Shown here piece after piece: positions 2,473-17,649 of a stretch of 64,000 bases of DNA. Made by a program: the position numbers and the translations under genes. Location: the NCBI GenBank assembly GCA_031292555.1, contig JARLGV010000103.1, positions 1-64,000 on the forward strand, written 5' to 3'. The DNA is from Fimbriimonas sp. (GTDB taxonomy: Bacteria > Armatimonadota > Fimbriimonadia > Fimbriimonadales > Fimbriimonadaceae). Position 1 is the stretch's first letter. Every line of letters starts with the position of its first letter. The notes under the pieces were generated by a model. It was not told the origin of the DNA, did not search any database, and was given only the letters and a program-made list of their open reading frames with translations.

Positions 2473-2617
2473 CTTTTGTCGCCCCCAAGTGGGGCGGTCC
2501 TGAATCGATCGGCGCAGATCGGTATTCGTTGTTTGGGTCAAGACGTCACCCGTAGTGTTTTGGGTCAACCAAAAAAACTCGGAACCCTGGGCTAGAAACG
2601 CGGGTCAGACCGGCACC

Positions 2618-4912
2618 ATGCTATCAAACGCCAGGCTCTCAATCTTGAGGGCTGCGGGATTCTGGACCGTCGGTGGTTCGTTGCTTATGGCAACTGCCTC
2701 GGCCCAGGATGGGTACCGCGTCACTCAAGAGAATACGAACGTCTCCGATACAGGAGGGAACTCCGGACCTGTCCGGATGGCCCGCGTCGCCTACATCCAG
2801 GGCAGCGCCAGTTGGCGAACGGATGCCAACTCCGACTGGTCGGCTGCCTCAACCAATCTCCCATTACGAGAAGGAGCGTCGGTTTCGGTAAATAGCGGTG
2901 GACGGACGGAGATCCAGTTCGACGACGGCAGCCGGTTGCGTTTGGGAACGGGAACTGTCGTCACGCTACACACGCTTTACAGCGACAGCAACGGCGAGTT
3001 CACTGAACTAAAGCTCAATACCGGTTTGGCGTCTCTGACGCTGGTAAGCAAGATGTCGGTGTTTCAAGTTGACACGCCTTTGACATCGATCAAAGCTCAA
3101 GGGCCGGCGAACATCCGCATTGGCATTTCGAGCGGAGTCGAGGTCGCGGTACGAAAGGGACGCTGTGACTGTGCCGGAAGCCAAGGCGCCACGACCCTCA
3201 ATGGCGGCGACTATGTAAGCATGTCGAGCGGGTCATCCGCCATGCAAGTCGGGGCGCTGCCTCACGCCGACAACTGGGATCAGTTCAACGACAACCGCGA
3301 CGCCTCATACAACCAACCTGATCCTTACGTTCCTTCCAGTGTGGCGATCATGGCCGGCAACCTCAACAGCTTCGGCAGTTGGCACGCCAACGCTCGATAC
3401 GGGCATGTATGGCGACCGCGCGGCATGTACGCCGGATGGCGACCGTATCACGACGGCCACTGGGTTTGGGTCGATCCGTTCGGCTGGACCTGGGTCGGCG
3501 CCGAGTCATGGGGCTGGGCTCCTTACCACTACGGCAGTTGGGTTCACGACGGCGGCGGTTGGGGCTGGGCGCCCGGCCCCCGCCAGCAGTATTGGTCACC
3601 GGCCGTCGTTAGCTTTAGCACCTACAACGGCGCGGTTGCATGGGTCCCGCTGGCGCCAACTGAGATGGTCTATCCCGCGCAGATATCCTTCGGTTTTCGG
3701 AGCGGAGATTGGTCTCTCTCGTTCGCCATCGGCGGAGCCGCGGCTTACTACCCGGGTGGCCAGGGCTATGTTGTCGGCCGGCCGTGGAGAAACGGGTATC
3801 TGAATCGATCTTACAACGTGTACGACGGCAATCGAATCTCCGCTCTCTATGCAGGCGGGTACTCGGGCGCCGATAACCGATTCCAGCCGATCTATGGCCG
3901 CAGCGCCTTTGCGATCACAAGGACGACAAATGCCGGCTTCTCTGGTTCAGGCAGGTACCTTTCCGGGACCACGGTCGACGCGACCAATTTCCAGAGAGGG
4001 CACTCGTTTGGCGCAGGAAGAGGTGCGCCAAACGTCTTTGGACCGGCGAATGTCAGGCCGTCAAGGGCTTCTTTCACATCGTCAAGGTCGTTTGGCGCAA
4101 GACGTCCTTCGGCCACCATCATGGAACGATCCATCGTTCGCGCACGGATTCCTGCCGAGGTATCAAGGAACAGCAGGCCGATGGCACGCTCTGTCGAGCC
4201 ATCGAATCGAGCGGCGACGGTGACTCGCGTTCCCCGGGGCGGGAACTTCCGGCCGGTCGGAAGGTCGACACCTGCGAATTTGGCAAATGGCAGAGGCAAC
4301 CTTGGCAGGTCTGGCGGCATCGCACGGGCAATTCCCGGCAAGCCAGTCAACTCCGGCCCAAGGAACGTAAGGCGTGCCAACCCGACGAGAACCAGCAATC
4401 CGGGTAGGACAAATGCGGTGAGGCCGCCTAACGCCGGAAACAGGAACCGTTCGGGCGGGACCATTCGCAAGGATCAGTCGGCCCCCAAGCAACAGCGTTC
4501 AGCACCCCGGCAGCAGCGCAATACTCTCCAGCATCGCTCCGCACCGCGGCAACAGCGCGCCGCTCCCCAACAGCGCTCGGCGCCCCGGCAGCAGCGCGCC
4601 GCTACCCAGCAGCGCTCGGCACCGCGACAGCAGCGCGCTGCTAGCCAACAGCGCTCGGCGCCTCGGCAACAGCGCGCTGCTAGCCAACAGCGCTCCGCAC
4701 CGCGGCAACAGCGCGCCGCTCCCCAGCGTCGCTCCGCACCGCGGCAGCAGCGCTCGGCGCCCCGGCAGCAGCGCAATGCTCCCCGGCAGCGCTCCGCTCC
4801 TCAGCAACGTTCCGCTCCCAAGCAGCAGCGCGCCGCGCCGCAGCAGAAACGGAGCACCGGCGGGAACCAAAAGCGCTCCGGCGGCGGGAACAACCAACGC
4901 CGTGGCGGCTAA
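2618..4912 (+). CDS. Secreted FecR-domain protein with DUF6600 Trp-rich repeats and Q/R-rich tail
   Basis: 764 aa from the ATG at 2618, chosen because it directly begins a signal peptide ending at ATASAQ; a GTG at 2555 is possible. A FecR-type beta-jellyroll follows (VAYIQGSASWR, then LREGASVSVNSGGRTEIQF and DGSRLRLGTGTVVTLH). Next is a Trp/Gly/Tyr-rich DUF6600 region with repeated motifs such as DGHWVWVDPFGWTWVG and WGWAPYHYGSWV. The last third is low-complexity and very basic (Arg, Gln, Pro, Ser, Ala), ending in Gly/Asn/Arg-rich sequence. In this FecR-plus-DUF6600 group the function is unknown; an envelope or extracellular matrix role is an inference. Confidence 0.8.
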   Translation: MLSNARLSILRAAGFWTVGGSLLMATASAQDGYRVTQENTNVSDTGGNSGPVRMARVAYIQGSASWRTDANSDWSAASTNLPLREGASVSVNSGGRTEIQFDDGSRLRLGTGTVVTLHTLYSDSNGEFTELKLNTGLASLTLVSKMSVFQVDTPLTSIKAQGPANIRIGISSGVEVAVRKGRCDCAGSQGATTLNGGDYVSMSSGSSAMQVGALPHADNWDQFNDNRDASYNQPDPYVPSSVAIMAGNLNSFGSWHANARYGHVWRPRGMYAGWRPYHDGHWVWVDPFGWTWVGAESWGWAPYHYGSWVHDGGGWGWAPGPRQQYWSPAVVSFSTYNGAVAWVPLAPTEMVYPAQISFGFRSGDWSLSFAIGGAAAYYPGGQGYVVGRPWRNGYLNRSYNVYDGNRISALYAGGYSGADNRFQPIYGRSAFAITRTTNAGFSGSGRYLSGTTVDATNFQRGHSFGAGRGAPNVFGPANVRPSRASFTSSRSFGARRPSATIMERSIVRARIPAEVSRNSRPMARSVEPSNRAATVTRVPRGGNFRPVGRSTPANLANGRGNLGRSGGIARAIPGKPVNSGPRNVRRANPTRTSNPGRTNAVRPPNAGNRNRSGGTIRKDQSAPKQQRSAPRQQRNTLQHRSAPRQQRAAPQQRSAPRQQRAATQQRSAPRQQRAASQQRSAPRQQRAASQQRSAPRQQRAAPQRRSAPRQQRSAPRQQRNAPRQRSAPQQRSAPKQQRAAPQQKRSTGGNQKRSGGGNNQRRGG
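4530..4850 (+). repeat. Coding tandem repeat (12-aa unit) in the FecR/DUF6600 protein tail
   Basis: Roughly nine degenerate copies of a 36-nt unit encode QRSAPRQQRAA plus one of P, T or S. Copies differ mainly at third positions and at the variable residue, which implies expansion followed by drift. The same DNA read backwards gives Cys-rich frames, which are artefacts. Confidence 0.75.
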
Positions 4913-6008: not shown

Positions 6009-6431
6009 ATGGATACGAGAATTGCAGGTTGGGCTTTCATTATGGCCTTGGCAGTCATCACTGCGGCGGGATGCACCCATTCAGCCAGTGACCACTATGG
6101 CTCGACCCGCTCCAACGCGACTGACGCCATAGAGGACACTGGGAAGGGGATCGCCTCCGACCCGAAGGCGGCCGGGCACACGATTTCCGAGGTTGCGAAC
6201 ATTACGTCCTACGACATCGATCAAACCTCGGCGAGAGTCGAACGGGCCATCCTCGGCGCACCGGACATCCACACCTGCGACTTGACGGTGAGTACGGACG
6301 ACGATGACATCGTTCTTCGTGGCAGAGTCGCTACCGAAGTCGAGAACGAGAGCGCTGAGCATCTCGCGAGGGCAGTCGCAGGCCCCGAATTTGCTGTCGA
6401 TGACCAGCTCAGAGTCCATTCCCAAGACTAA
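6009..6431 (+). CDS. BON-domain lipoprotein
   Basis: 140 aa. A lipoprotein signal ends in ITAAGC (Cys22), predicting lipidation. A linker rich in Asp, Ser and Thr follows, then one BON domain at about 75-138 (SARVERAILGAPDIHTCDLTV, then DDIVLRGRVATEVENESAEHLARAVAG). BON domains bind phospholipid or envelope surfaces and occur in osmotically induced proteins (OsmY, DolP). Its position at the head of a run of small membrane proteins, and the presence of two further BON proteins at 10.8 and 13.7 kb, suggest an envelope-stress role. Confidence 0.8.
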   Translation: MDTRIAGWAFIMALAVITAAGCTHSASDHYGSTRSNATDAIEDTGKGIASDPKAAGHTISEVANITSYDIDQTSARVERAILGAPDIHTCDLTVSTDDDDIVLRGRVATEVENESAEHLARAVAGPEFAVDDQLRVHSQD

Positions 6432-6539
6432 CCCCAAGGTAGGTGCCAGATCAAAGCTCAACATGTTGCTCCTAAGGAAGAGGAAGTTCCGGCAGACAGG
6501 GAGCCGTGCTCCCAAGACCTGCTAGACGCACTGCGCCGC

Positions 6540-6752
6540 TTGACCGAAGTGACTGAAAGGCAACTCGCTCAACAGCGAAGTTGGAAACTCGCTCTTCGGA
6601 ACGGACTGCTCGCGGGCCTGGGTGGAGTCATCGGCGCGACGGTGGTCGTGAGCGTCATTATCGCCATCACTCAACCATTCCGGAGGCTGGATGCGATAGG
6701 GCCGATGATCGACCACTTGGACACGACCTTGCAGCAATCAAGCAGGCGCTAA
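6540..6752 (+). CDS. Small membrane protein, DUF5665-like; start uncertain
   Basis: 70 aa if it starts at the TTG at 6540. A single long hydrophobic segment (NGLLAGLGGVIGATVVVSVI) is followed by a short amphipathic tail (FRRLDAIGPMIDHLDTTLQQ), the layout of DUF5665 proteins. No ribosome site precedes the TTG. The frame is open and protein-like (EEEVPADREPCSQDLLDALR) back to the stop of the BON lipoprotein, without any ATG or GTG, so the true start may be a rarer codon. Function unknown. Confidence 0.5.
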   Translation: MTEVTERQLAQQRSWKLALRNGLLAGLGGVIGATVVVSVIIAITQPFRRLDAIGPMIDHLDTTLQQSSRR

Positions 6753-6808
6753 ATCATTCAGGCCAGAGGGGTTGACGGTGGCTAAGGGCCATCGGGGCCC
6801 AATCGAAC

Positions 6809-7216
6809 ATGAAACCAAAATCGAGAATTGCAACAACACAGAAGAAGGGAATTGCGGCTTGGATACCTTGGATCCAGGCTCCCAAATCGTTGGCCGAGAG
6901 GGCGCGAGATCGCCGCGAACTTGCCAATATGAGGCAGGAAATGGAGGCCACAGTGGCCGGTCTCAGCCCCGAAATGCAGACAGAAATTAGGGACCTGTCG
7001 GACTCAAAGGAACCCCGGGCCGCAGAGCGGGAACTGCTTGATTACGTCGTCACAGACGATCACTTTACGCAATTGAGGAAGGACTCTCGCCGCGGCGACT
7101 ACAAGAAGGAAGGATCCATGCGCGATGGAGTCTATTGGATCGCCATGGTCCCCGTTCTCATCGTGTTGTACTTCATCTTCTCATGGCTGTCATCTGGCCA
7201 TGTTTCGACTCATTGA
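6809..7216 (+). CDS. Uncharacterised protein with C-terminal membrane helix
   Basis: 135 aa. A basic N-terminus is followed by a charged helical region (ERARDRRELANMRQEMEATV) and a single C-terminal transmembrane segment (VYWIAMVPVLIVLYFIFSWL). The product would be a cytoplasmic domain anchored at its C-terminus. No clear ribosome site is seen. I do not recognise the family. It lies between two small membrane protein genes of the stress-like cluster. Confidence 0.5.
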   Translation: MKPKSRIATTQKKGIAAWIPWIQAPKSLAERARDRRELANMRQEMEATVAGLSPEMQTEIRDLSDSKEPRAAERELLDYVVTDDHFTQLRKDSRRGDYKKEGSMRDGVYWIAMVPVLIVLYFIFSWLSSGHVSTH

Positions 7217-7302
7217 CTCAAATCAGTGCCGCTTGAACCTCCTTCATGTGGCGACTGACCTATGTCTCAAATCGAGGATGTGCCTCGAAGAAGGGAGATC
7301 CT

Positions 7303-7449
7303 ATGCTCGAACTTATCATCATCGTACTCGTCGTTTGCTGGCTGTTTGGGATCAGCTTGCATATCGGAGGCGGCCTCATTCACATCCTGCTTGTCATCGC
7401 CTTGATCGCCATCATCTTGCGCTTGGTGCGAGGCAGAAGCACCTCCTAG
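7303..7449 (+). CDS. lmo0937-family small membrane protein
   Basis: 48 aa. I start at the ATG at 7303, which has GGGAG at -9 and matches the short family length. The protein is two hydrophobic helices with a Gly-rich turn: LVVCWLFGISLHIGGGLIHI, then LLVIALIAIILRLVRGR. This GG-(L/F)-IH-x-LLVIA-x-I pattern and the RLxRGR end are typical of lmo0937/DUF5670 proteins, which are often stress-induced. Function unknown. Confidence 0.75.
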   Translation: MLELIIIVLVVCWLFGISLHIGGGLIHILLVIALIAIILRLVRGRSTS

Positions 7450-7689
7450 ATTCCGCGGCAACGGGCTCGCCACCGGCCGACAGGACCGCCGCGCTATCCG
7501 TGGACCGTGGGTGCTGCGCCTCAAGTGAACAGAAGCTCGGGCCGTGGGCTACCGGATACATAGCAATGTTGTACGTCATTCAGACGACAGCCAAGGTGTG
7601 GACTTGCGTCTACGCCGACGATTCACTGAGACTGAAAGGCATGCTCCGCCGTCGACGCTGGTGCGCGACCATGGGGCGAGAAGAACACC

Positions 7690-8304
7690 ATGGAAAACCC
7701 TCAACCTATCACCATCCAGATCCACTTGGCCAACGGGCAAACGAGGGTGTTCAGTCAAGACATCCCAGAGTTCGTCACCACGATCTGCAACGACCTTGAT
7801 GGTCGGGTCTTTACTCAACCGACTCTGATCATCCAGGCCGAGGATAACGTCGTCGCCTTTTGCGGTCCCGCATTGATTGGCATTTCCATCCTCACCGACC
7901 AGATACCGAATTCCTTCAGCCTTCGCGAAAACAGGTCGAAAACCGTGGTTTCGCAGATCACGCAGGAGAACTTCCTCCTTCGGCGTCATCAGAACCGACC
8001 GAAAACCGAAGGCATTCGGAGCAGCATCCTTTCCGAAATCGTCTTTGTCAGTGGAGAGCACCTGTACCTGGAGTTTAGCGAAATCGCGATCGGCGGGATG
8101 GGGGAGCGAGCCGAGATGCATCACCTATTCTCGAATCCGTCCTTGGCATGTCGCAAGTTGGGAGGGGGATTTAGCCTCTGGAATACTGCCCAAATGGTGT
8201 CTTGGTCACACGCTCCCAAGTTGGAGACGCCGGACAACTCCTGGCACGCGGTCGAGGTCCTCGGAACGTCGAATGCGCCAACCAAGATCCTCAGCGTGGC
8301 CTGA
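7690..8304 (+). CDS. Uncharacterised protein
   Basis: 204 aa, with GAGAAG upstream of the ATG. No signal peptide or membrane segment. It begins with beta-rich sequence (ITIQIHLANGQTRVFSQDI) and has a His/Asn-rich C-terminal half. No motif that I recognise. It ends 75 nt before the oleate hydratase gene on the same strand and may be co-transcribed with it. Confidence 0.55.
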   Translation: MENPQPITIQIHLANGQTRVFSQDIPEFVTTICNDLDGRVFTQPTLIIQAEDNVVAFCGPALIGISILTDQIPNSFSLRENRSKTVVSQITQENFLLRRHQNRPKTEGIRSSILSEIVFVSGEHLYLEFSEIAIGGMGERAEMHHLFSNPSLACRKLGGGFSLWNTAQMVSWSHAPKLETPDNSWHAVEVLGTSNAPTKILSVA

Positions 8305-8379
8305 CGTCGGGCTGTCGGATAAGAACTTGACCTACCTGGGAGGCAACAAAACGCCCAGGAACCCCTTCGCGAGCATCCT

Positions 8380-9942
8380 ATGAATAAATACTATTTTGTC
8401 GGCAGCGGCATCGCTTCGTTGGCCGGTGCGGCCTACCTGATCAGAGACGCTGAGGCGCTCGGGAAGGAGATCACCATTTTCGAAGCGGCAGACGACGCCG
8501 GCGGCGCACTGGATGCCCACGGTTCTCCTCAATTGGGTTACTTCATGAGCGGGAGTCGAATGTTTGAGCACCACTACAATGCGACGCTCGATCTTCTGTC
8601 GTTCATTCCCTCCGTTAGCGATCCGCTTCTGTCGATCAAGGAAGAGACCGAACGGGTTGAGAAGGATGCCGAATGGCACAACAAGGCTCGCCTGATCAAT
8701 CTGGACGGTGTAACCGTCGACTTCCATCAGATGGGTTTTAGCGAGAGGGACCGCCTGGATCTGTTTGCCCTAATGGCGAGGACGGAGCACTCACTGGATT
8801 CAAAGCGCATCACGGATTGCTTCGATGAGCATTTCTTTCAGACCAACTTCTGGTTTGAGTGGTGCACGCTCTTCGCATTCGAGAGTTGGCACAGCGCCAT
8901 TGAGTTTCGCAGATATCTTCTGCGATTCATCCACCATTTCTCGACCATCGATACTCAAGAGGGCATCTTCCGCACGCGCTATAACCAATACGAGGCCATC
9001 GCCATGCCCATCGTGAAATGGCTACGCGACAAGGGTGTGGAATTCCGCATGGGCACGCGCGTTATCGATCTGGGTTTTGCCACCGACCCTGACTCGATCA
9101 CCGTGAACTCGCTGACAACGGTGAGCGGAGGGGTGACCCAAGAGATCCCGGTCGGAGAGGAAGACCTGGTGTTCGTAACAAACGGATCGATGACCGCCGA
9201 CAAGAGCTTTGGATCCATGACTATGGCGCCGACGCAGGCGGTAGGTGGCGAGGCCTGGAAGCTCTGGGAAGTCATGGCCGCCGGCCGCCCGGATTTCGGC
9301 AATCCAACAGTCTTCAATGGCCACATCGATGAATCGGCATGGGAGTCTTTTACCGTCACCGTCAGCGATCCGAAGTTCTTTCGACTGATGGAGGCTTACA
9401 CCGGATCTGCGCCCGGAAGGGGTGGGCTGCTAACATTCAAGGACTCTCAGTGGCTCCTCACTCTCTCGATCTTCAAGCAGCCGTTTTATGTCGATCAGCC
9501 GGCAGATGTATCGGTTTGGTGGGGTTATGGCCTCTACCTAGACAGGCCGGGAGATTATGTAAAGAAGCCGATGAAGGAATGCACGGGCATGGAGATCCTC
9601 GAGGAGGCTCTCGGGCATCTGCACTTCGACGACGATAGGGAAGCCATCCTCGCATCCTCGATCTGCATTCCGTGCATGATGCCTTACATCACCAGCCAGT
9701 TCCTGGTGAGGAAGCACGGCGATCGTCCGCAGGTCGTCCCCCCAAAATCCAAGAATCTGGCGTTCATCGGCCAATTCGCCGAATTGCCCGACGATGTGGT
9801 GTTCACGGTGGAGTACTCGGTTCGGTCGGCACAGATGGCCGTCTACACGCTACTCGATCTCGAAATGGAGCCTTCCACCTTCTATAAGGGGCAGTATGAC
9901 CTGGGCGTCCTGTGGGACGCGTTCAAGACGATGCTGCGGTGA
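8380..9942 (+). CDS. ohyA: Oleate hydratase (FAD-dependent, MCRA family)
   Basis: 520 aa. The N-terminal Rossmann motif (YYFVGSGIASLAGAAYLI) and the adjoining AGGALDAHG and SGSRMFEHHY segments are diagnostic of the myosin-cross-reactive-antigen/oleate hydratase family. Also present are RTRYNQYEAI and, near the C-terminus, FIGQFAELPDDVVFTVEYSV. These enzymes add water to the cis-9 double bond of unsaturated fatty acids to give 10-hydroxy acids, using FAD structurally. This copy is somewhat shorter than the usual 550-650 aa. Within a stress cluster it may detoxify or remodel unsaturated fatty acids. A terminator-like hairpin follows it. Confidence 0.93.
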   Translation: MNKYYFVGSGIASLAGAAYLIRDAEALGKEITIFEAADDAGGALDAHGSPQLGYFMSGSRMFEHHYNATLDLLSFIPSVSDPLLSIKEETERVEKDAEWHNKARLINLDGVTVDFHQMGFSERDRLDLFALMARTEHSLDSKRITDCFDEHFFQTNFWFEWCTLFAFESWHSAIEFRRYLLRFIHHFSTIDTQEGIFRTRYNQYEAIAMPIVKWLRDKGVEFRMGTRVIDLGFATDPDSITVNSLTTVSGGVTQEIPVGEEDLVFVTNGSMTADKSFGSMTMAPTQAVGGEAWKLWEVMAAGRPDFGNPTVFNGHIDESAWESFTVTVSDPKFFRLMEAYTGSAPGRGGLLTFKDSQWLLTLSIFKQPFYVDQPADVSVWWGYGLYLDRPGDYVKKPMKECTGMEILEEALGHLHFDDDREAILASSICIPCMMPYITSQFLVRKHGDRPQVVPPKSKNLAFIGQFAELPDDVVFTVEYSVRSAQMAVYTLLDLEMEPSTFYKGQYDLGVLWDAFKTMLR

Positions 9943-9972
9943 ACTAACTGAAGTCTATTCAGCTTCTAACTC

Positions 9973-10007
9973 CGGGTCCACAGGAGCATTCTGCTCCTGC
10001 GGGCCCG
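9973..10007 (+). terminator. Hairpin after oleate hydratase
   Basis: A 16-bp stem (arms 9973-9988 and 9992-10007, with wobble pairs) closes on a 3-nt loop TTC, 31 bases after the stop. Its stability fits a transcription terminator, though only a weak T-containing tract follows. Confidence 0.6.
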
Positions 10008-10773
10008 TCCTACATTCTGTAGCCTGGAATCGGGCATCGCATTGCGACGGCGAGGCCGGACGTCGTGTCGTTTATGTGGCAACCACGTGACAGGCAGTCA
10101 CTCTAGTCCGTGTTGGAAGGCAAATTTGCATTGGCTGGCATGTTCGTCTCTATCGGGACAGCAAGTCGGCAATCAGAGGCTACGCCGGAAGCCAGAAATG
10201 CCCGCTGTTGCTTCGGCCAACGTTCTTACGACGCAGGAACGAAGACGACAAGGCTGTAGACCGGTAAGGAACACAGGGTCCTTTGAGTGGCCAGGTGAGA
10301 TGACTTGCCTACCTGTCGCACGGCGCCCGATCGAAGAAGGCATTGCAGAACTCTTACCGGAAACTCGTTCGGCAGGCTGTCCCCTCGTCGTAGCCAATAT
10401 CCTTCGACACAAACATCCTTCGAGATGATGACGAATTCGTATTGACTAGACTGGGTCACATTGAAACCATACAGGATTTCTTTCGTAACGAATAGTCTGC
10501 TGATTTGTTGTCAGTAAATGATCTATGGAGAGCGGGACTAATACGCCTAGCGACTCAACTCATGTGCGGTTGCCATCCTTGTCGTCTCTGGAATATGGCT
10601 TGACCCTAAGCGGGAAGTCTCTAAGACACGGTAGTCGAAACCGATCGATTGCGGTAAGTTTCTGCCCAACATGCACCCCGCAGCAACATTGTATAGTCGC
10701 TACCGGGCGCATGATGGATCGCGCAGTATGCGAGATCTCGTTTACGAACTCGCATTGGTGAGGGGCCGAGAAG
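10008..10773. other. Long intergenic region with one doubtful small frame
   Basis: No gene is well supported here. The only protein-like frame is on the minus strand at 10226-10459 (77 aa, GTG start, containing GYWLRRGDSLPNEFPVRVLQ). It has no ribosome site and its C-terminus looks random. Other open frames on the plus strand have unnatural composition. Confidence 0.4.
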
Positions 10774-11463
10774 CTAGACGGCTACCAAGGACCATAGGAC
10801 CGTGAGTTCGTTGATCACCAACACGACTCCCGGTGCGGCCCAAGCAACCCGGTCGGCCTCCTCCCTCTCCGCAATCGTCCGCACTTTTCCGCTTAGCGTC
10901 ACCGTGTTTCCTGAGGTCTCGACGGTTACTTTGTCGGCATCGAGCATCGAGTTGCGCCTAAAGGCGGCATGGATATCCGATTCGATCGTTACGGCCGAGA
11001 GCTTTGGTTTGATGGCGATCAGATTGGAGACGCCTTTCACTCCCATTAGGTAGTGAACTGCCTGCTCCGCAGCGTTCTTCTGATTCCACCATTCGACATC
11101 ACCCTCTAGCGTAATCCAACCATCGCGAACGGTTACCTTGACTGCATCGTCTGGAACCGCAGGCGACAACTTGATTTGGTGGCCAGCGGAAGCGGCAATG
11201 TCCCCATCGTTTCGGGTCATCGATCCCGGTAGTCTGACTTGAATGGCGTCGGCGATGGAATGGACTCCTGTAACTCGCTTAGCCGCGCGAATTGCATTCG
11301 CTTTCTCCCAATAGGTAGACGTATAGCCATTGAGGGTAACAGTTCCGCCTTTTACCAAGACCCCAATATCGCTGGTCTTCACGCCTGGCTCATACTTGAG
11401 CTCAGATAGAATGTCGTCCTTTAGGTCAGCATCGCTGGTGCCTCTATTCATTGAAGTGTTCAT
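10774..11463 (-). CDS. Triple-BON-domain protein (paralogue 1)
   Basis: 229 aa from the ATG at 11463, which has AGAAGGA upstream; the longer frame is not supported. Three BON domains follow one another at about 12-75, 85-150 and 158-225. Typical strands are [38 protein letters not shown] and VETSGNTVTLSGKVRTIAER. There is no signal peptide, unlike OsmY, so it may be cytoplasmic. It has the same length and layout as the protein at 13699-14388. In the family such proteins are linked to osmotic and general stress; the exact ligand is unknown. Confidence 0.85.
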   Translation of the reverse strand: MNTSMNRGTSDADLKDDILSELKYEPGVKTSDIGVLVKGGTVTLNGYTSTYWEKANAIRAAKRVTGVHSIADAIQVRLPGSMTRNDGDIAASAGHQIKLSPAVPDDAVKVTVRDGWITLEGDVEWWNQKNAAEQAVHYLMGVKGVSNLIAIKPKLSAVTIESDIHAAFRRNSMLDADKVTVETSGNTVTLSGKVRTIAEREEADRVAWAAPGVVLVINELTVLWSLVAV

Positions 11464-11616
11464 CTGGGTCCTTCTTCCTTGCTGAGATATTCTCGGCATG
11501 CGAATAGATGGCTTGTCGAGAACCCCATTTGTTCCACCAAATTGCCAGACTTCCGGCACCCGGCATAGGAGGTTTGAATTCACGGTCGGGCGCCAGTCCA
11601 AGGACGCGATGCAGAG

Positions 11617-11859
11617 CTACTCGACGATATCTCGGAAGCTCGGATTGTCGTCCAGGATTTCCGAGACTACATGGTTCATCGGAGGATTCTGGGTGTCAAG
11701 TCCGTCGGAACCCGATACGTGCTGAAAGCGAAACTGCTCAGGCGTGATACCCCGCATATAGGCCTCTCGAAACGAGGTTTCGGGCAAGTCGTGGATCGTC
11801 ATGTCGATATCGGATTGGCAAGTGCCGTCCAGGTCGTCCATCCACTTGGCAAGGTTCAT
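11617..11859 (-). CDS. Small uncharacterised acidic protein
   Basis: 80 aa, with GGAG about 10 nt before the ATG. Acidic and Met/Asp-rich at the start (MNLAKWMDDLDGTCQSDIDM), with no signal, membrane helix or known motif. Supported by the ribosome site, the protein-like composition, and its place between two minus-strand stress-type genes. Confidence 0.5.
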   Translation of the reverse strand: MNLAKWMDDLDGTCQSDIDMTIHDLPETSFREAYMRGITPEQFRFQHVSGSDGLDTQNPPMNHVVSEILDDNPSFRDIVE

Positions 11860-12033
11860 GGTCTGCTGCTCCGTGCGACTCCTCTGGCTTCCGTGTGATC
11901 TGGATTCGGGAGGGATCGCCTAGTTCAGTGTTGCCGGAATTGCGCACTGTAATCCTGTCTTATAAATCCATGACAGCCTATTGTGAGACAGGGAGATGTC
12001 GGGCGCAGAAGCGCCCGATCTCGCGTGCATCAG

Positions 12034-12690
12034 CTATGCCGTTAAGTGCTCCCTTGCTTTCGCCAGGATTTCGCCCTCTGTCATGTGGTTTAGGTCTATC
12101 TTTACGACGCCGATCACGCGCTTGGCGAGGTTAGGGTCGTGCTTCAGGAGGTCCTGGAGAAACTCGTCGGATTCCCGGCTGGATCCGCTGCCGTCGCCAA
12201 GCACGAGTACTTCCTCGGCGCCTGCCAGCGCGTTTGCGATCTTCTCGAAATACTCGTGGTGTAGCCCGCTAGCGGAAGGGCGGGCATAGACATGATGAGT
12301 GTGAACGTGTCTCTCCCAGCCGTGCGGGTCACTCGGCTCGATGTGGATGGACTTCGATTCCGGCGACTCCGTTCGATAGATGCGTGCCTCGGCGTGGTCG
12401 AGCACCAGGAGACATTTGGCAGCCCCTTGCCGGATTTCGCTTTGAGTCTCCGAAGTCCGAAGGAACTTGCGTATGTCGGCGACCATGTCTTTGTCCGCTT
12501 CCTTGCCTTGAGGATCCAAAGTAACGGCATGCCCGTTTCGAATGAACTTCAGCTTTCCGTTCGGCTCGTCGACAACTTCTCCGAGGTGCCTGAACAGGGC
12601 CAGCAGGCCTCGCCACTCGATGTTGCCTGAGGTGGGGTGTCGGAAGACAGCATCGTAAGTGTGTTGGTCTTGTCCGGTAAGTTCTACCAT
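12034..12690 (-). CDS. HicA-like domain fused to bacterial release-factor-like (baeRF) domain
   Basis: 218 aa from the ATG at 12690, which has AGGAG 7 nt upstream. The N-terminal 70 residues resemble a HicA-type double-stranded-RNA-binding fold (YDAVFRHPTSGNIEWRGLLA, then GKLKFIRNGHAVTL). The C-terminal part resembles the third domain of archaeo-eukaryotic release-factor relatives found in bacteria: KCLLVLDHAEARIYR, then a glycine-rich EEVLVLGDGSGSS, and VIGVVKIDLNHMTEGEILAK. If so, it may act on stalled or hibernating ribosomes or on RNA. The domain calls come from pattern recognition and are moderate. It is next to Dps and BON genes, which fits a stress role. Confidence 0.6.
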   Translation of the reverse strand: MVELTGQDQHTYDAVFRHPTSGNIEWRGLLALFRHLGEVVDEPNGKLKFIRNGHAVTLDPQGKEADKDMVADIRKFLRTSETQSEIRQGAAKCLLVLDHAEARIYRTESPESKSIHIEPSDPHGWERHVHTHHVYARPSASGLHHEYFEKIANALAGAEEVLVLGDGSGSSRESDEFLQDLLKHDPNLAKRVIGVVKIDLNHMTEGEILAKAREHLTA

Positions 12691-12956
12691 TGGGAATCTC
12701 CTGTTTGCGTTCTCCCGCAGCGCTCGCGGGCCAAATGGGCGCCCCACCCTTTGGCTGGACCTCACCCACGATGTTTTGTGTAACGGTTACCCATCAGTCT
12801 TGTCGATGCGCGCAGACAGTGCCAGTCCGGCTCAGCACCGTCATCCGATACGTGTCCTCAAAAGGTCATGCACGGGCAGGCAGACACAAAAGAGCGGACT
12901 CGCGTCAATCTTGGCCGCAGGCTAGCCTTTCTTGTAACCGCTAGGGGGGGGTCTGT

Positions 12957-13460
12957 ATGGCTATCGCCGAACAAAACGAATTATTCAACGCTACGCTCGC
13001 GACGGTGGACGGCCGCCAGCGCGAGACGAATCACAAGGCTCTTCAACCGATCCTTTACGACTTGATCGCACTTGGCCGTGTACTCAAGCAGCTTCACTGG
13101 AACGTCGTGGGTCCCAGTTTCAGGTCGATTCATTTGCATCTGGATGAGATCTATGCGACCGTCGATGGAGCGGTCGACGAGGTCGCAGAAAGGATTGCCG
13201 CGACAGGGCATAGCCCTAACGGCCGGATGCGTGACGTTTTTGACAACACGGAGATCGAGGACGTACCTGTAGGCTTTCTGCGTGATTCGGACGTACTCGT
13301 CTTGGCCGAACACGCGGTCCGGCGAGTCGTGGATTTCGTTCGCGTTCGTACGCAGGAGATCGAGCAGATCGACACTGCGACGGCCGACATGCTCCACAAG
13401 ATCGCTCTGGATTTGGAGAAGCACCACTGGATGCTTGCCGCTCAGCGCATAGATGGATGA
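12957..13460 (+). CDS. dps: Dps-family DNA-protection ferritin
   Basis: 167 aa with a strong GGGGGGG ribosome site. The four ferroxidase ligands have exactly the Dps spacing: His47, His59, Asp74 and Glu78 (H-12-H-15-D-4-E), within LHWNVVGPSFRSIHLHLDEI and VDEVAERI. Dps proteins form 12-subunit shells that oxidise Fe(II) with hydrogen peroxide and often bind DNA. The N-terminus has only modest positive charge, so DNA binding is not certain. It ends just before a strong intrinsic terminator, so it is probably monocistronic. Confidence 0.93.
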   Translation: MAIAEQNELFNATLATVDGRQRETNHKALQPILYDLIALGRVLKQLHWNVVGPSFRSIHLHLDEIYATVDGAVDEVAERIAATGHSPNGRMRDVFDNTEIEDVPVGFLRDSDVLVLAEHAVRRVVDFVRVRTQEIEQIDTATADMLHKIALDLEKHHWMLAAQRIDG

Positions 13461-13496
13461 TCTTTCGCACGAGTGGTTAGGTTTCTCAAAGGCGCT

Positions 13497-13535
13497 GACG
13501 AAGCCGACAAGTTACTTGCCGGCTTCGTCGTTTTC
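13497..13535 (+). terminator. Intrinsic terminator after dps
   Basis: GACGAAGCCGACAAG (13497-13511) pairs with CTTGCCGGCTTCGTC (13515-13529), with one mismatch and a 3-nt loop, followed by GTTTTCC. It lies 37 nt past the dps stop. Confidence 0.85.
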
Positions 13536-13646
13536 CGTCCCGGTTCTTGCTCGCCGTGTTCGGCCATTGGCCGACGAGGCGAGGGGGGCGATTCGCAGGC
13601 GGCAGCGTCACTCATTACGCCACCGGTCGCGGCTGTCCACAGAGGT

Positions 13647-13688
13647 CCTCAACCTTAGCTTCCCTTCCATGGGTCGCTAAGGTTGAGG
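13647..13688. terminator. Perfect 13-bp hairpin, probable terminator of the minus-strand BON gene
   Basis: CCTCAACCTTAGC (13647-13659) and GCTAAGGTTGAGG (13676-13688) are exact complements with a 16-nt loop. It sits 10 nt past the stop of the triple-BON gene and faces the dps terminator. No T-run follows on either strand, so a protein site is an alternative. Confidence 0.5.
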
Positions 13689-13698
13689 AGCCTGTTTG

Positions 13699-14388
13699 CT
13701 AGGCGCCCAACCAGCCCCAGTGGACGGTGAGCATGTTGTCAACGGAGGTTACGCCCGGTGCAGCCCAAGCCGTTCGTCCCGCTTCCTCTTTCTCGGCATA
13801 GGTTCGCACCTTGCCGCGCAGCGTTACGCAGTTTCCCGACGTCGAGACGGCGACCTCGTTGGAATCCAGCATGGCGCTTCTCCTGAATGCGGCCTGAATG
13901 TCCGATTCGATCGCCATAGCGGAGACCTTGGGTTTGATGCATATCTCGTTGGAGACCCCCTTGACTCCCGAGAGGTAGTGAACCGCGCTCTCGGCGGCGG
14001 TCTTCTGATACCACCACTCGACGTCGCCCTCCAACGTGATCCAGCCTTCGCGGACGGTTACCTTGACCGCATCGGCGGGGACAGAGGGAGACCATTTGAT
14101 TTGCTGGCCTGCCGCCTCTGCAACGTCTCCATCGGTGCGGTTCAGTGAGCCGGGCAGCTTGACTTGAATGTCATCGGCAATGGCGTTGACGCCAACAACA
14201 CGCTTGGCCGCGCGTACGGCATGCGACTTCTCCCAATAGCTGGTCACGAACCCATTGAGGGTTACTGTTCCATCCTTTACGAGGACTCCGATATCGCTGG
14301 TTTTGACGCTAGGCTCATACTTGAGCTCGGATAGGATGTCATTCTTGAGGTCAACGTCGGTGATGCACTTACTGGTCGTTGAGTTCAT
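13699..14388 (-). CDS. Triple-BON-domain protein (paralogue 2)
   Basis: 229 aa, exactly the length of the protein at 10774-11463, and alignable along its whole length. Shared stretches include [28 protein letters not shown]-type helices and [20 protein letters not shown] lies about 11 nt before the ATG. Three BON domains occur in the same places. The pair arose by duplication, and the genes between them (HicA-baeRF, dps) have no duplicates. No signal peptide. Confidence 0.87.
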
Positions 14389-15813: not shown

Positions 15814-17271
15814 CTAGCCTATCTCGATGCCGTGCCTCTGGAGGACGGCGTTCACCTCGGGACTGCCCCGCAGGTTTTTGTGGGTGCGTGAACCTGCGGC
15901 CAGAAGCAACTCGACGCTTCGGGGGAAGTTGCCGTCCTTTCGCCACGAGTGGAGTGAGCCGTGGACACAGGCGGATAGAGGGTTTCCGCCGAACTCGTTT
16001 TGGATCTCCAGCGACGGTCCGAACTTCAGGATCAGTTCGATGACATCGTCAAACCCATGAAAGGCGGCCCGATCGAGCGGGGAAGAACGATGGATTCCGG
16101 TCGCATCGGGATCGAACCCAAGTTCCAGCATCAGCTTGACCGCGTCGATCCTTCGACCCCATGCCGCTTCGGCAAGGATGGCTTGGTCTCTGGCCGAGAG
16201 TTCGGGAACCAGATTTGCCAGCTCCTTGGCAACGCCTTCGTTCCCGCCCCAGCACGCCGAGAGCAGCCTTTGAACGGGCGATGACCGGCTCTCGATGACG
16301 TGGCTAGCTTCCGATTTGCTATGTGCGATCGCGACTTGAAATGGCCGTCCAAGGCCGATGTTGTACGTATAGATCGGCATACCCGGCGCTTCGGGGATCA
16401 TCGGGTTGCCGGCGTCGGATGGCGTTCGGCCCAGACATTCTGGATCGTCGTCGATCAGTCGCTCCAAGAGAGGGAGATCCTCGAGCATGATGGCGATATA
16501 GACATCCGCCGTGGCGCCCACCTCGATGAGCTTCCGGCACACATCGGTTTCCATGATCCGAAATTGGGCGGCGGTGCTAGTGTGGTCAAGGTCCCGGGCA
16601 TCAAGTTCGGCTCCAGCCCCAACGAGGATCTCCACGATTTCTGGAGTCTTGGAAAAGTGGAGTGGATATTGCCCATCGCCACCCCGTTCAAAGACGACCT
16701 CCGGGCTCTCACGGATGATCTCTCTGAGTTCCTTGACCAGTCCCAAGCGCGCCGCGGCGTGAGCGGTAAGCGTGGCACCTCGAGCGAGCAAGTACTCCGA
16801 CATAGAGTCGCTTGCCGTATCGATCGCTCCGAAGCTTCCCGCCCACCAAGTGCTGCGGGAATCAATATCGGCGCCCCGCTCAAGGAGTAAGTCGACCAGC
16901 GGACGGTCGTCGCGCTCGGCGGCGATCATGATCGCGGGACTCCCGAATGCCTCTTCGTCGTAGGAATGGATAAGAGCGGGGTCGGTATCCAAAAGGAGCC
17001 TGACGGCATCCCGGTCTCCTCCGCGCAACGCCCGGAGGAATAAACTGCGCCGACTGGGGACGTCTTCGACGTGGCGTTTGAGTTTGGACCAACTCGCAAA
17101 GCCATATTCGCGAGCGAGAACCCGCTGGGCATCGGCCAGGCGATACGACGCTTTGGCTTCGCCTGCACGAGCAAGAGCGTCCGGATCGCCGGATCGTAGT
17201 GAAAGAAGGAGCGTCTTGGCCTGACCTTTGAGATGCTCAAGATCGGCGCGCTCAGGCAATTGCTTATTCAT
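15814..17271 (-). CDS. Ankyrin-repeat protein
   Basis: 485 aa from the ATG at 17271, which has GGAGG upstream. The N-terminal about 75 residues hold a helical segment seen in many bacterial ankyrin proteins (ADLEHLKGQAKTLLLSLR, then LAREYGFASWSKLKRHVE). At least eight ankyrin-like units follow, such as SPAIMIAAERDDRPLVDLLL, ERGADIDSRS and SPLDRAAFHGFDDVIELILK. It should be a soluble protein-binding scaffold. Its partner is not evident from the neighbourhood. Confidence 0.85.
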   Translation of the reverse strand: MNKQLPERADLEHLKGQAKTLLLSLRSGDPDALARAGEAKASYRLADAQRVLAREYGFASWSKLKRHVEDVPSRRSLFLRALRGGDRDAVRLLLDTDPALIHSYDEEAFGSPAIMIAAERDDRPLVDLLLERGADIDSRSTWWAGSFGAIDTASDSMSEYLLARGATLTAHAAARLGLVKELREIIRESPEVVFERGGDGQYPLHFSKTPEIVEILVGAGAELDARDLDHTSTAAQFRIMETDVCRKLIEVGATADVYIAIMLEDLPLLERLIDDDPECLGRTPSDAGNPMIPEAPGMPIYTYNIGLGRPFQVAIAHSKSEASHVIESRSSPVQRLLSACWGGNEGVAKELANLVPELSARDQAILAEAAWGRRIDAVKLMLELGFDPDATGIHRSSPLDRAAFHGFDDVIELILKFGPSLEIQNEFGGNPLSACVHGSLHSWRKDGNFPRSVELLLAAGSRTHKNLRGSPEVNAVLQRHGIEIG

Positions 17272-17649
17272 ATGAACCTCCATGCGTTCAGCCCGAGGTC
17301 CGCGATCAGGCCGCATAAAGGGTCGGTTTCGTATTCTGATGTTTCGGTGGGTTGAACCCTTTCCGCGGACCCGGTGGCATCCGATGCGCCTAAGCGGAGA
17401 TTATACAACGAATTGCCGGTAATTAAACGGATAAGGCCTCGGAGAGAATAATGCGCGGCAAGGGCCGTTTCGGCAGGTCGGACGACCACTATCGGCCTAG
17501 CCGCCGCTGCCGGGAGTGCTCGCGTAGACGGTGCAGTCCTTGAATCCTAACCGATGGTTACGTTCGGGCGCCCGCGATACGGTTGGGACGATGTTCTCTA
17601 GGTGGCGTCGTCACCAGAAGGTCTCGCCGAGGGCTTGGCACAAGCACAC
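17272..17649. other. Intergenic region, no gene seen
   Basis: This 378-bp stretch lies upstream of the ankyrin gene start and past the end of the DUF1579 gene. The open frames in it lack ribosome sites and natural composition. It presumably includes the ankyrin gene promoter. Confidence 0.4.

What the first reader, a model, noticed from the sequence alone, without database searches (positions are those of the whole stretch)
12034..12690. Possible fusion of a HicA-like RNA-binding domain to a release-factor-like domain
The N-terminus looks like a HicA fold and the C-terminus like the eRF1-type domain of bacterial baeRF proteins. A fusion of these would suggest a ribosome-directed stress or defence factor. 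It sits next to dps.
Basis: inference. Interest (0 to 1): 0.5.

Follow-up and report, generated by a model that had tools for sequence, protein, structure and literature searches.

The report
Domesticated toxin fused to release-factor domain
This gene joins a toxin-like domain that has lost its cutting residue to the ribosome-core domain of a release factor, a conserved and apparently undescribed pairing that may put ribosomes to sleep under stress, and in its phylum it occurs almost only in bacteria that lack the usual sleep factor HPF.

Summary
The gene (window 12034-12690, minus strand, 218 aa) is an N-terminal HicA-fold domain (residues about 1-88) joined to an aeRF1-type domain (about 89-218). 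The second half matches eRF1/Pelota/Balon domain 2 (middle, RNase-H-like), not domain 3. It is not a chance fusion: 34 full-length members were found in Armatimonadota, Verrucomicrobiota, Alphaproteobacteria and one Nostoc plasmid. The HicA half is kin to HicB-partnered HicA toxins in sequence and fold, but has no HicB beside it, has lost the catalytic His (kept in 5 of 32) and its basic charge; GGQ stands in the loop in 1 of 33. BON (OsmY-like) genes lie within 5 kb in 6 of 29 genomes (0.17 expected). Most telling, 17 of 19 Armatimonadota genomes with the fusion lack detectable HPF/RaiA, which 219 of 291 genomes of the phylum have. I read it as a non-catalytic, Balon-like ribosome-silencing factor built on a domesticated HicA; the architecture is secure, the function is inferred. 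I found no description of this pairing in the papers searched. New variant of a known kind.

The parts
12034..12690 (-). whole gene of the HicA-like / aeRF1 middle-domain fusion, 218 aa plus stop
12427..12690 (-). N-terminal HicA-fold domain, residues 1-88 (H-H-E-E-E-H); Lys46 stands where HicA has its catalytic His
12037..12426 (-). C-terminal aeRF1 domain-2-like (RNase-H-like) domain, residues 89-218
12274..12336 (-). low-confidence His-rich loop, about residues 119-139, at the place of the eRF1 GGQ loop; no GGQ
12697..12702 (-). Shine-Dalgarno-like AGGAGA before the ATG
12957..13460 (+). dps-like gene (Ferritin 3.3e-17), divergent neighbour
13699..14388 (-). three-BON-domain (OsmY-like) protein
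10774..11472 (-). three-BON-domain (OsmY-like) protein, read from an inner start
11617..11859 (-). small ORF (80 aa) between the fusion and the BON gene; weak DUF5419, under cut-off

Best explanation
A stress protein made from a HicA-type domain that has left the toxin-antitoxin context (no HicB, catalytic His lost, basic charge lost) joined to a single aeRF1 middle domain without GGQ. Most likely mechanism (inferred): under stress or energy shortage the protein binds the large-subunit side of the ribosomal A site through the middle domain, as Balon and eRF1 do, without releasing the peptide; the HicA-like domain takes the place of the aeRF1 N-terminal domain as a second contact (rRNA, a ribosomal protein or a partner). 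It thereby silences or protects ribosomes. In Fimbriimonas-type genomes that lack HPF/RaiA it could be a main hibernation factor. Shown: architecture, predicted folds, conservation, loss of HicB and of catalytic residues, BON neighbourhood, rarity of HPF in the carriers of this phylum. Inferred: ribosome binding and silencing.
For: Fold of residues 88-218: Foldseek best E 2.0e-5 (eRF1-eRF3 complex); VIA Z 12.0 to Pelota 3oby, 10.6 to Rv2629 (Balon) on the M. smegmatis ribosome, 10.4 to Psychrobacter Balon. Fold of residues 1-88: top three 1whz, 6hpb, 6g26 (HicA), Z 5.9, 5.3, 5.2, next 4.5. PHROG toxin 2.6e-5; hhalign 7e-11 to HicAs of which two scanned pass PF07927, with HicB beside them. GGQ in the loop in 1 of 33; catalytic His position His in 5 of 32. 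HicB: 0 hits at E <= 1 in 33 fusion loci and in the first 26 kb of the window. BON within 5 kb in 6 of 29 genomes, expected 0.17. HPF absent from 17 of 19 fusion genomes against presence in 219 of 291 genomes of the phylum. Balon genes lie in stress operons with OsmY, DnaJ, Hsp20 and RaiA, and Balon lacks GGQ (PMC10901736, passages).
Against: No functional data. Both domains are acidic (N about -2, C about -5 net on average; HicA toxins about +5), which does not suggest RNA binding, though two three-domain baeRF-like proteins (net -5, -11) and 15 HPFs of the phylum (net -6 to +2) are also neutral to acidic. The C-domain profile has no sequence match to solved eRF1 or Balon, and the positively charged helix after the loop that PMC6514570 describes for baeRF proteins is not evident. 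Nine of ten Verrucomicrobiota/Alphaproteobacteria carriers tested do have HPF, and 55 of 72 HPF-less genomes of the phylum lack the full fusion. HPF was not near the fusion in any genome that has both (other contigs, or 183 kb away in G100). The HPF correlation is not corrected for kinship.
Confidence: 0.5

Rival explanations
1. A ribosome-targeted RNase: the HicA domain still cuts mRNA or rRNA and the aeRF1 domain carries it to the A site.
For: HicA toxins are RNases (PMC7180214, passages); a ribosome-docking domain would give it a target; fold kept.
Against: Catalytic His position is His in 5 of 32, Lys in the window protein; basic charge lost; no HicB to restrain it. HicB-partnered relatives lack that His too (5 of 5 Arg), so the column alone does not exclude activity.
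Confidence: 0.12
2. A toxin held in check in cis: the RNase-H-like C-domain acts as a built-in antitoxin, as HicB (also RNase-H-like) does in trans.
For: HicB has a degenerate RNase-H fold (PMC7180214, passages) and no separate HicB is found.
Against: C-domain does not match HicB by profile (E 0.19) and the rows that match it best in fold are eRF1/Pelota/Balon; HicA-only relatives without C-domain and without HicB exist.
Confidence: 0.08
3. A ribosome rescue or quality-control factor (Pelota-like), freeing stalled ribosomes rather than silencing them.
For: Best single fold match is archaeal Pelota, Z 12.0; Burroughs and Aravind propose a rescue role for baeRF-1 proteins (PMC6514570, passages).
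Against: No C-terminal domain for a delivery GTPase and no N-terminal aeRF1 domain; GGQ missing; the enriched neighbour is a stress-type BON gene.
Confidence: 0.15
4. No ribosome role: an RNase-H-fold/HicA-fold protein repurposed as a regulatory or metal- or pH-sensing stress protein (histidine-rich).
For: His 7.1% on average over 14 members against 2.3% in 47 window genes; acidic; non-eRF1 RNase-H folds (YqgF Z 8.9, RuvX 7.5) also match.
Against: aeRF1-type proteins fill nearly all rows above them, and Balon shares the stress neighbourhood.
Confidence: 0.15

Closest known systems
Balon (Rv2629, Msmeg1130; PMC10901736)
   Same: aeRF1 middle domain without GGQ; gene among OsmY/BON-type stress genes; VIA Z 10.6 over 123 residues
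   Different: Balon has three aeRF1-type domains; here only the middle domain, with a HicA-fold domain in front. The Balon survey removed sequences under 300 aa, so this family would have fallen out
[quoted passage not shown]
   Same: single core domain, catalytic loop not conserved
   Different: those described as having lost both flanking domains are core-only; the passages read mention no HicA domain, and no paper in the library holds both 'baeRF' and 'HicA'
HicA toxin of HicAB modules (PF07927)
   Same: fold, and sequence kinship through HicB-partnered HicA proteins
   Different: no HicB, catalytic His and basic charge lost, fused to a second domain
HPF/RaiA (PF02482)
   Same: possible role; carriers of the fusion in the phylum mostly lack it
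   Different: unrelated protein; shared role not shown

Membership tests
HicA toxin (PF07927) | Pfam HMM above cut-off | tested here: not met
   0 Pfam families for P0001 and for its N-terminal 80 residues; two sister HicB-partnered proteins reach 40.4 and 40.7 bits against 27
HicA toxin (PF07927) | HicA (dsRBD-like) fold | tested here: met
   top three of 36 rows in VIA are HicA-type entries, Z 5.2-5.9 (1whz as HicA is recalled); Foldseek alone weak (rank 2 is 6g26, E 0.61)
HicA toxin (PF07927) | catalytic His in strand 2 | tested here: not met
   Lys46 in the window; His in 5 of 32 fusions; but 5 of 5 HicB-partnered-type relatives have Arg there too
HicA toxin (PF07927) | adjacent HicB antitoxin | tested here: not met
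   0 hits with two HicB profiles in 33 loci and the first 26 kb of the window
HicA toxin (PF07927) | RNase activity | not testable with these tools
   needs an assay
aeRF1 superfamily / baeRF-1 | RNase-H-like middle domain of aeRF1 type | tested here: met
aeRF1 superfamily / baeRF-1 | sequence model of a described baeRF family above cut-off | tested here: not met
   best E over 14 members 0.16 (baeRF_family12), 0.26 (baeRF_family2), 0.13 (Host_attach)
aeRF1 superfamily / baeRF-1 | GGQ motif (active release factors) | tested here: not met
   in the loop in 1 of 33; most baeRF-1 families lack the Gln too (PMC6514570)
Balon | three aeRF1-type domains | tested here: not met
   218 aa, one aeRF1-type domain
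Balon | stress-gene neighbourhood | tested here: met
   BON enrichment, dps in the window; adjacency to RaiA not seen
Balon | A-site binding, translation silencing | not testable with these tools
   needs an assay or cryo-EM

The most novel reading that the evidence does not exclude
A toxin-antitoxin toxin domain was disarmed and fused to a release-factor core to make a compact ribosome hibernation factor, which in Fimbriimonas and related Armatimonadota stands in for the otherwise very common HPF/RaiA.
Probability: 0.3. Interest if true: 0.8.

Novelty: new variant of a known kind. Interest (0 to 1): 0.6.

Why it matters
It adds a domain architecture to the aeRF1/Balon group that length filters would miss, gives a concrete case of a toxin domain moved out of the toxin-antitoxin context, and offers a testable answer to how a bacterial lineage without HPF might shut down its ribosomes.

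Tried and rejected
Direct Pfam and NCBIfam scans of the protein and of its parts gave nothing above cut-off. phmmer and profile searches of PDB sequences gave nothing meaningful for either half: the structural claims rest on predicted folds, not on sequence. hhalign of the N-domain family against canonical GSH-type HicA was weak (probability 19.6, E 0.0012), and so was that of the HicB-partnered HicAs against the same set (18.2, E 0.0013), so the link runs through the latter. A HicA-HicB fusion reading was rejected for the C-domain. Phage origin: no match in 50,697 phage records nor in a viral-contig scan. Defence island: nothing in PADLOC for the fusion. Two described families sought across 201 genomes of the phylum, baeRF_family12 and Host_attach, matched in 1 and 2 genomes; baeRF_family2 matched in 1 of 30 carrier genomes or records, under cut-off, in a frame unlike an aeRF1 protein. 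Promoter scan of the dps/fusion gap: none. Dps was not counted across other loci.

Limits: the neighbourhood scan lists only the 25 commonest families for each of two sets (92 and 93 proteins, three genes either side in 33 loci), cut from my own simple gene calls; rarer families are hidden. The commonest families there were general ones (zinc-binding dehydrogenase 4 and 4, response regulator 4). One control genome (G168) whose HPF was found with PF02482 was missed with my own HPF alignment, so a very divergent HPF cannot be excluded. The N-domain tree has 89 columns; many forks are open.

Full report
What is there. The minus-strand ORF 12034-12690 encodes 218 residues from an ATG with AGGAGA before it. 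The window lies in a 6.46 Mb genome whose same-genus relatives include a contig titled Fimbriimonas ginsengisoli (G011 = L044); that the window is from a Fimbriimonas-like armatimonadote is inferred from this.

A conserved family. A search of 101 genomes (the window's and its relatives) with the protein found it in 14; the alignment profile found matches in 25 of 291 genomes of the phylum, of which 19 cover both halves, 4 only the C-half and 2 only the HicA half. A scan of named genomes gave 30 loci: 21 with both halves, namely 7 contigs already among the 19, 9 Verrucomicrobiota and 5 Alphaproteobacteria; and 9 with the HicA half alone. A Nostoc plasmid adds one (36.6% identity over 94% of the query, annotated as hypothetical protein). 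In all 34 full-length members including the window; identity to the window protein was 28-57% in the first 14-row alignment.

N-terminal half. The window protein itself matches PHROG 8887 ('toxin') at 2.6e-5 over residues 6-79; a HicB-partnered HicA matches the same model at 1.2e-24. Six HicA-only relatives (A7) align to the window protein over residues 3-81 at 7e-11; two of them were scanned and pass the HicA_toxin cut-off (40.4 and 40.7 bits against 27), and the HicB partners of those two pass the HicB cut-off. In one search, five of the six have a HicB-like ORF directly after them; the sixth shows none in the stretch held. A prediction of residues 1-88 from 46 sequences (pLDDT 84.2) puts 1whz (recalled as a Thermus HicA), 6hpb and 6g26 (HicAB complexes) first, Z 5.9, 5.3 and 5.2, ahead of the next row at 4.5. 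These Z values are modest and Foldseek alone gives no significant hit (rank 2 is 6g26, E 0.61); the claim rests on the agreement of sequence and fold.

Loss of toxin features. At the column aligned with the catalytic His of HicA (role of the His from PMC7180214, passages), 5 of 32 fusions have His and the window has Lys46; HicB-partnered-type relatives have Arg in 5 of 5, so this column alone does not separate toxin from non-toxin. The N-domain is on average -2.25 in net charge in 32 fusions and -2.6 in 9 orphans, against +5.2 in 5 HicB-partnered-type and +4.9 in 16 canonical HicA. No HicB was found with two profiles in 33 fusion loci or in the first 26 kb of the window (the second profile recovered 9 of 11 positive loci, two of which were not used to build it; the first recovered the other two, by construction). 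Canonical HicA genes exist in 12 of 30 carrier genomes or records, elsewhere.

C-terminal half. The whole-protein prediction (pLDDT 77.7, pTM 0.52) matches eRF1 at E 2.0e-5 in Foldseek. In VIA, going by title and residue range and in part by recall, 38 of the first 39 rows are eRF1, aRF1, Pelota/Dom34 or Balon (the other is YqgF, Z 8.9), with Z 8.0 to 12.0, over residues 88-218 and the chain residues of the middle domain. The eRF1 GGQ loop corresponds to a low-confidence, His-rich loop; GGQ stands there in 1 of 33 (L092; L054 has a GGQ outside the loop). Relatives consisting of this domain alone exist (L102, L103, and more distant L104, L105). The C-domain does not match HicB.

Neighbourhood. 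Around the window gene are dps, two three-BON proteins and a third BON gene; these are all the BON genes found in the genome. Over 29 carrier genomes, 6 have a BON gene within 5 kb of the fusion; 0.17 are expected from gene density, and 0 of 200,000 simulated sets reached 6 (the Nostoc plasmid record, without BON, was left out; the simulation ignores kinship). In G100 the BON ORF overlaps the fusion ORF by 14 bases and in G005 it lies about 80 bases before it. Other neighbours seen in two or three of 33 loci are KaiB, PRC-barrel, DnaJ, peroxidase and oleate hydratase; these were not tested against a control. Balon genes are reported beside OsmY, DnaJ and RaiA (PMC10901736, passages); that OsmY is a BON protein is recalled.

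HPF. PF02482 was found in 219 of 291 genomes of the phylum. Of the 19 with the full fusion 2 have it (G100, G107) and 17 do not; Fisher P 1.1e-9, and 8e-4 when the window's genus (20 genomes, none with HPF, 11 with the fusion) is left out. Within one genus (g6) G053 has the fusion and no HPF, G024 the reverse; in family f12 three carriers lack HPF while non-carrier G149 has it. A profile of 15 HPFs of the phylum again found no clear HPF in the 17 carriers without one (best E 0.013), though it missed one control. Against a strict replacement: 55 HPF-less genomes have no full fusion, and 9 of 10 Verrucomicrobiota and Alphaproteobacteria carriers tested have HPF. Kinship is not corrected for, and G053 and G161 are 87% and 75% complete.

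History. In a tree of 47 N-domains the HicB-partnered-type HicAs are one clade (100/99) apart from fusions and orphans; some orphans (L065, L066, L062's second copy, L069) sit among fusions, which fits later loss of the C-domain (few columns). L062 shows a HicA-only ORF that keeps a stretch like the last 18 model positions of the C-domain beside a full fusion.

Literature. No paper in the library holds 'baeRF' and 'HicA'; 'HicA' and 'eRF1' gave one, on Babela massiliensis (listing only); 'HicA' with 'ribosome hibernation' gave two, neither on this by title (listing only); the HicA/release factor/Balon search listed 15 of 25, none on such a fusion by title; HicA, HicB, fused, orphan listed 6, none on this by title. 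Subscription papers and supplements were not searched.

Verdict. Architecture: near certain. Disarmed HicA: likely. Ribosome-silencing stress factor: about even odds. HPF stand-in: a bold but testable reading.

Noticed in passing
window 6009-14388: All three BON genes found in the genome lie in this stretch, around the fusion and dps.
   Followed up: yes
whole genome and genus g1: No HPF/RaiA domain was found in any of the 20 genomes of the window's genus, although 219 of 291 genomes of the phylum have one.
   Followed up: partly
L062:5420-5809: A HicA-only ORF that keeps a stretch like the end of the C-domain, next to a full fusion: a probable copy with an internal deletion.
   Followed up: partly
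window 12034-12690 and family: Histidine makes up 7.1% on average (14 members) against 2.3% in 47 window genes, with an HVH-rich loop where eRF1 has GGQ; a pH or metal switch is conceivable.
   Followed up: partly
L036, L037, L040, L041, L043, L075 (A7): HicA proteins, most with HicB beside them, that have Arg in place of the canonical catalytic His and a conserved HRPHP/HRPYP motif.
   Followed up: no
window 8380-9942; L063, L064: Oleate hydratase (MCRA) lies near the fusion in the window and two of the 93 neighbour proteins are MCRA, by their sequences those in L063 and L064.
   Followed up: no
window 4490-4846: A 39-base tandem repeat inside ORF 2555-4912 encodes QQRSAPRQQR-type repeats.
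   Followed up: no
window 15814-17316: Ankyrin-repeat protein with a PADLOC PDC-M72A match (4.9e-12), probably from the repeats alone.
   Followed up: no
L052, L074: Fusion genes near phosphoketolase and acetate kinase (L052), and on a Nostoc plasmid near AtpZ/AtpI, orange carotenoid protein and DUF1269 (L074).
   Followed up: no
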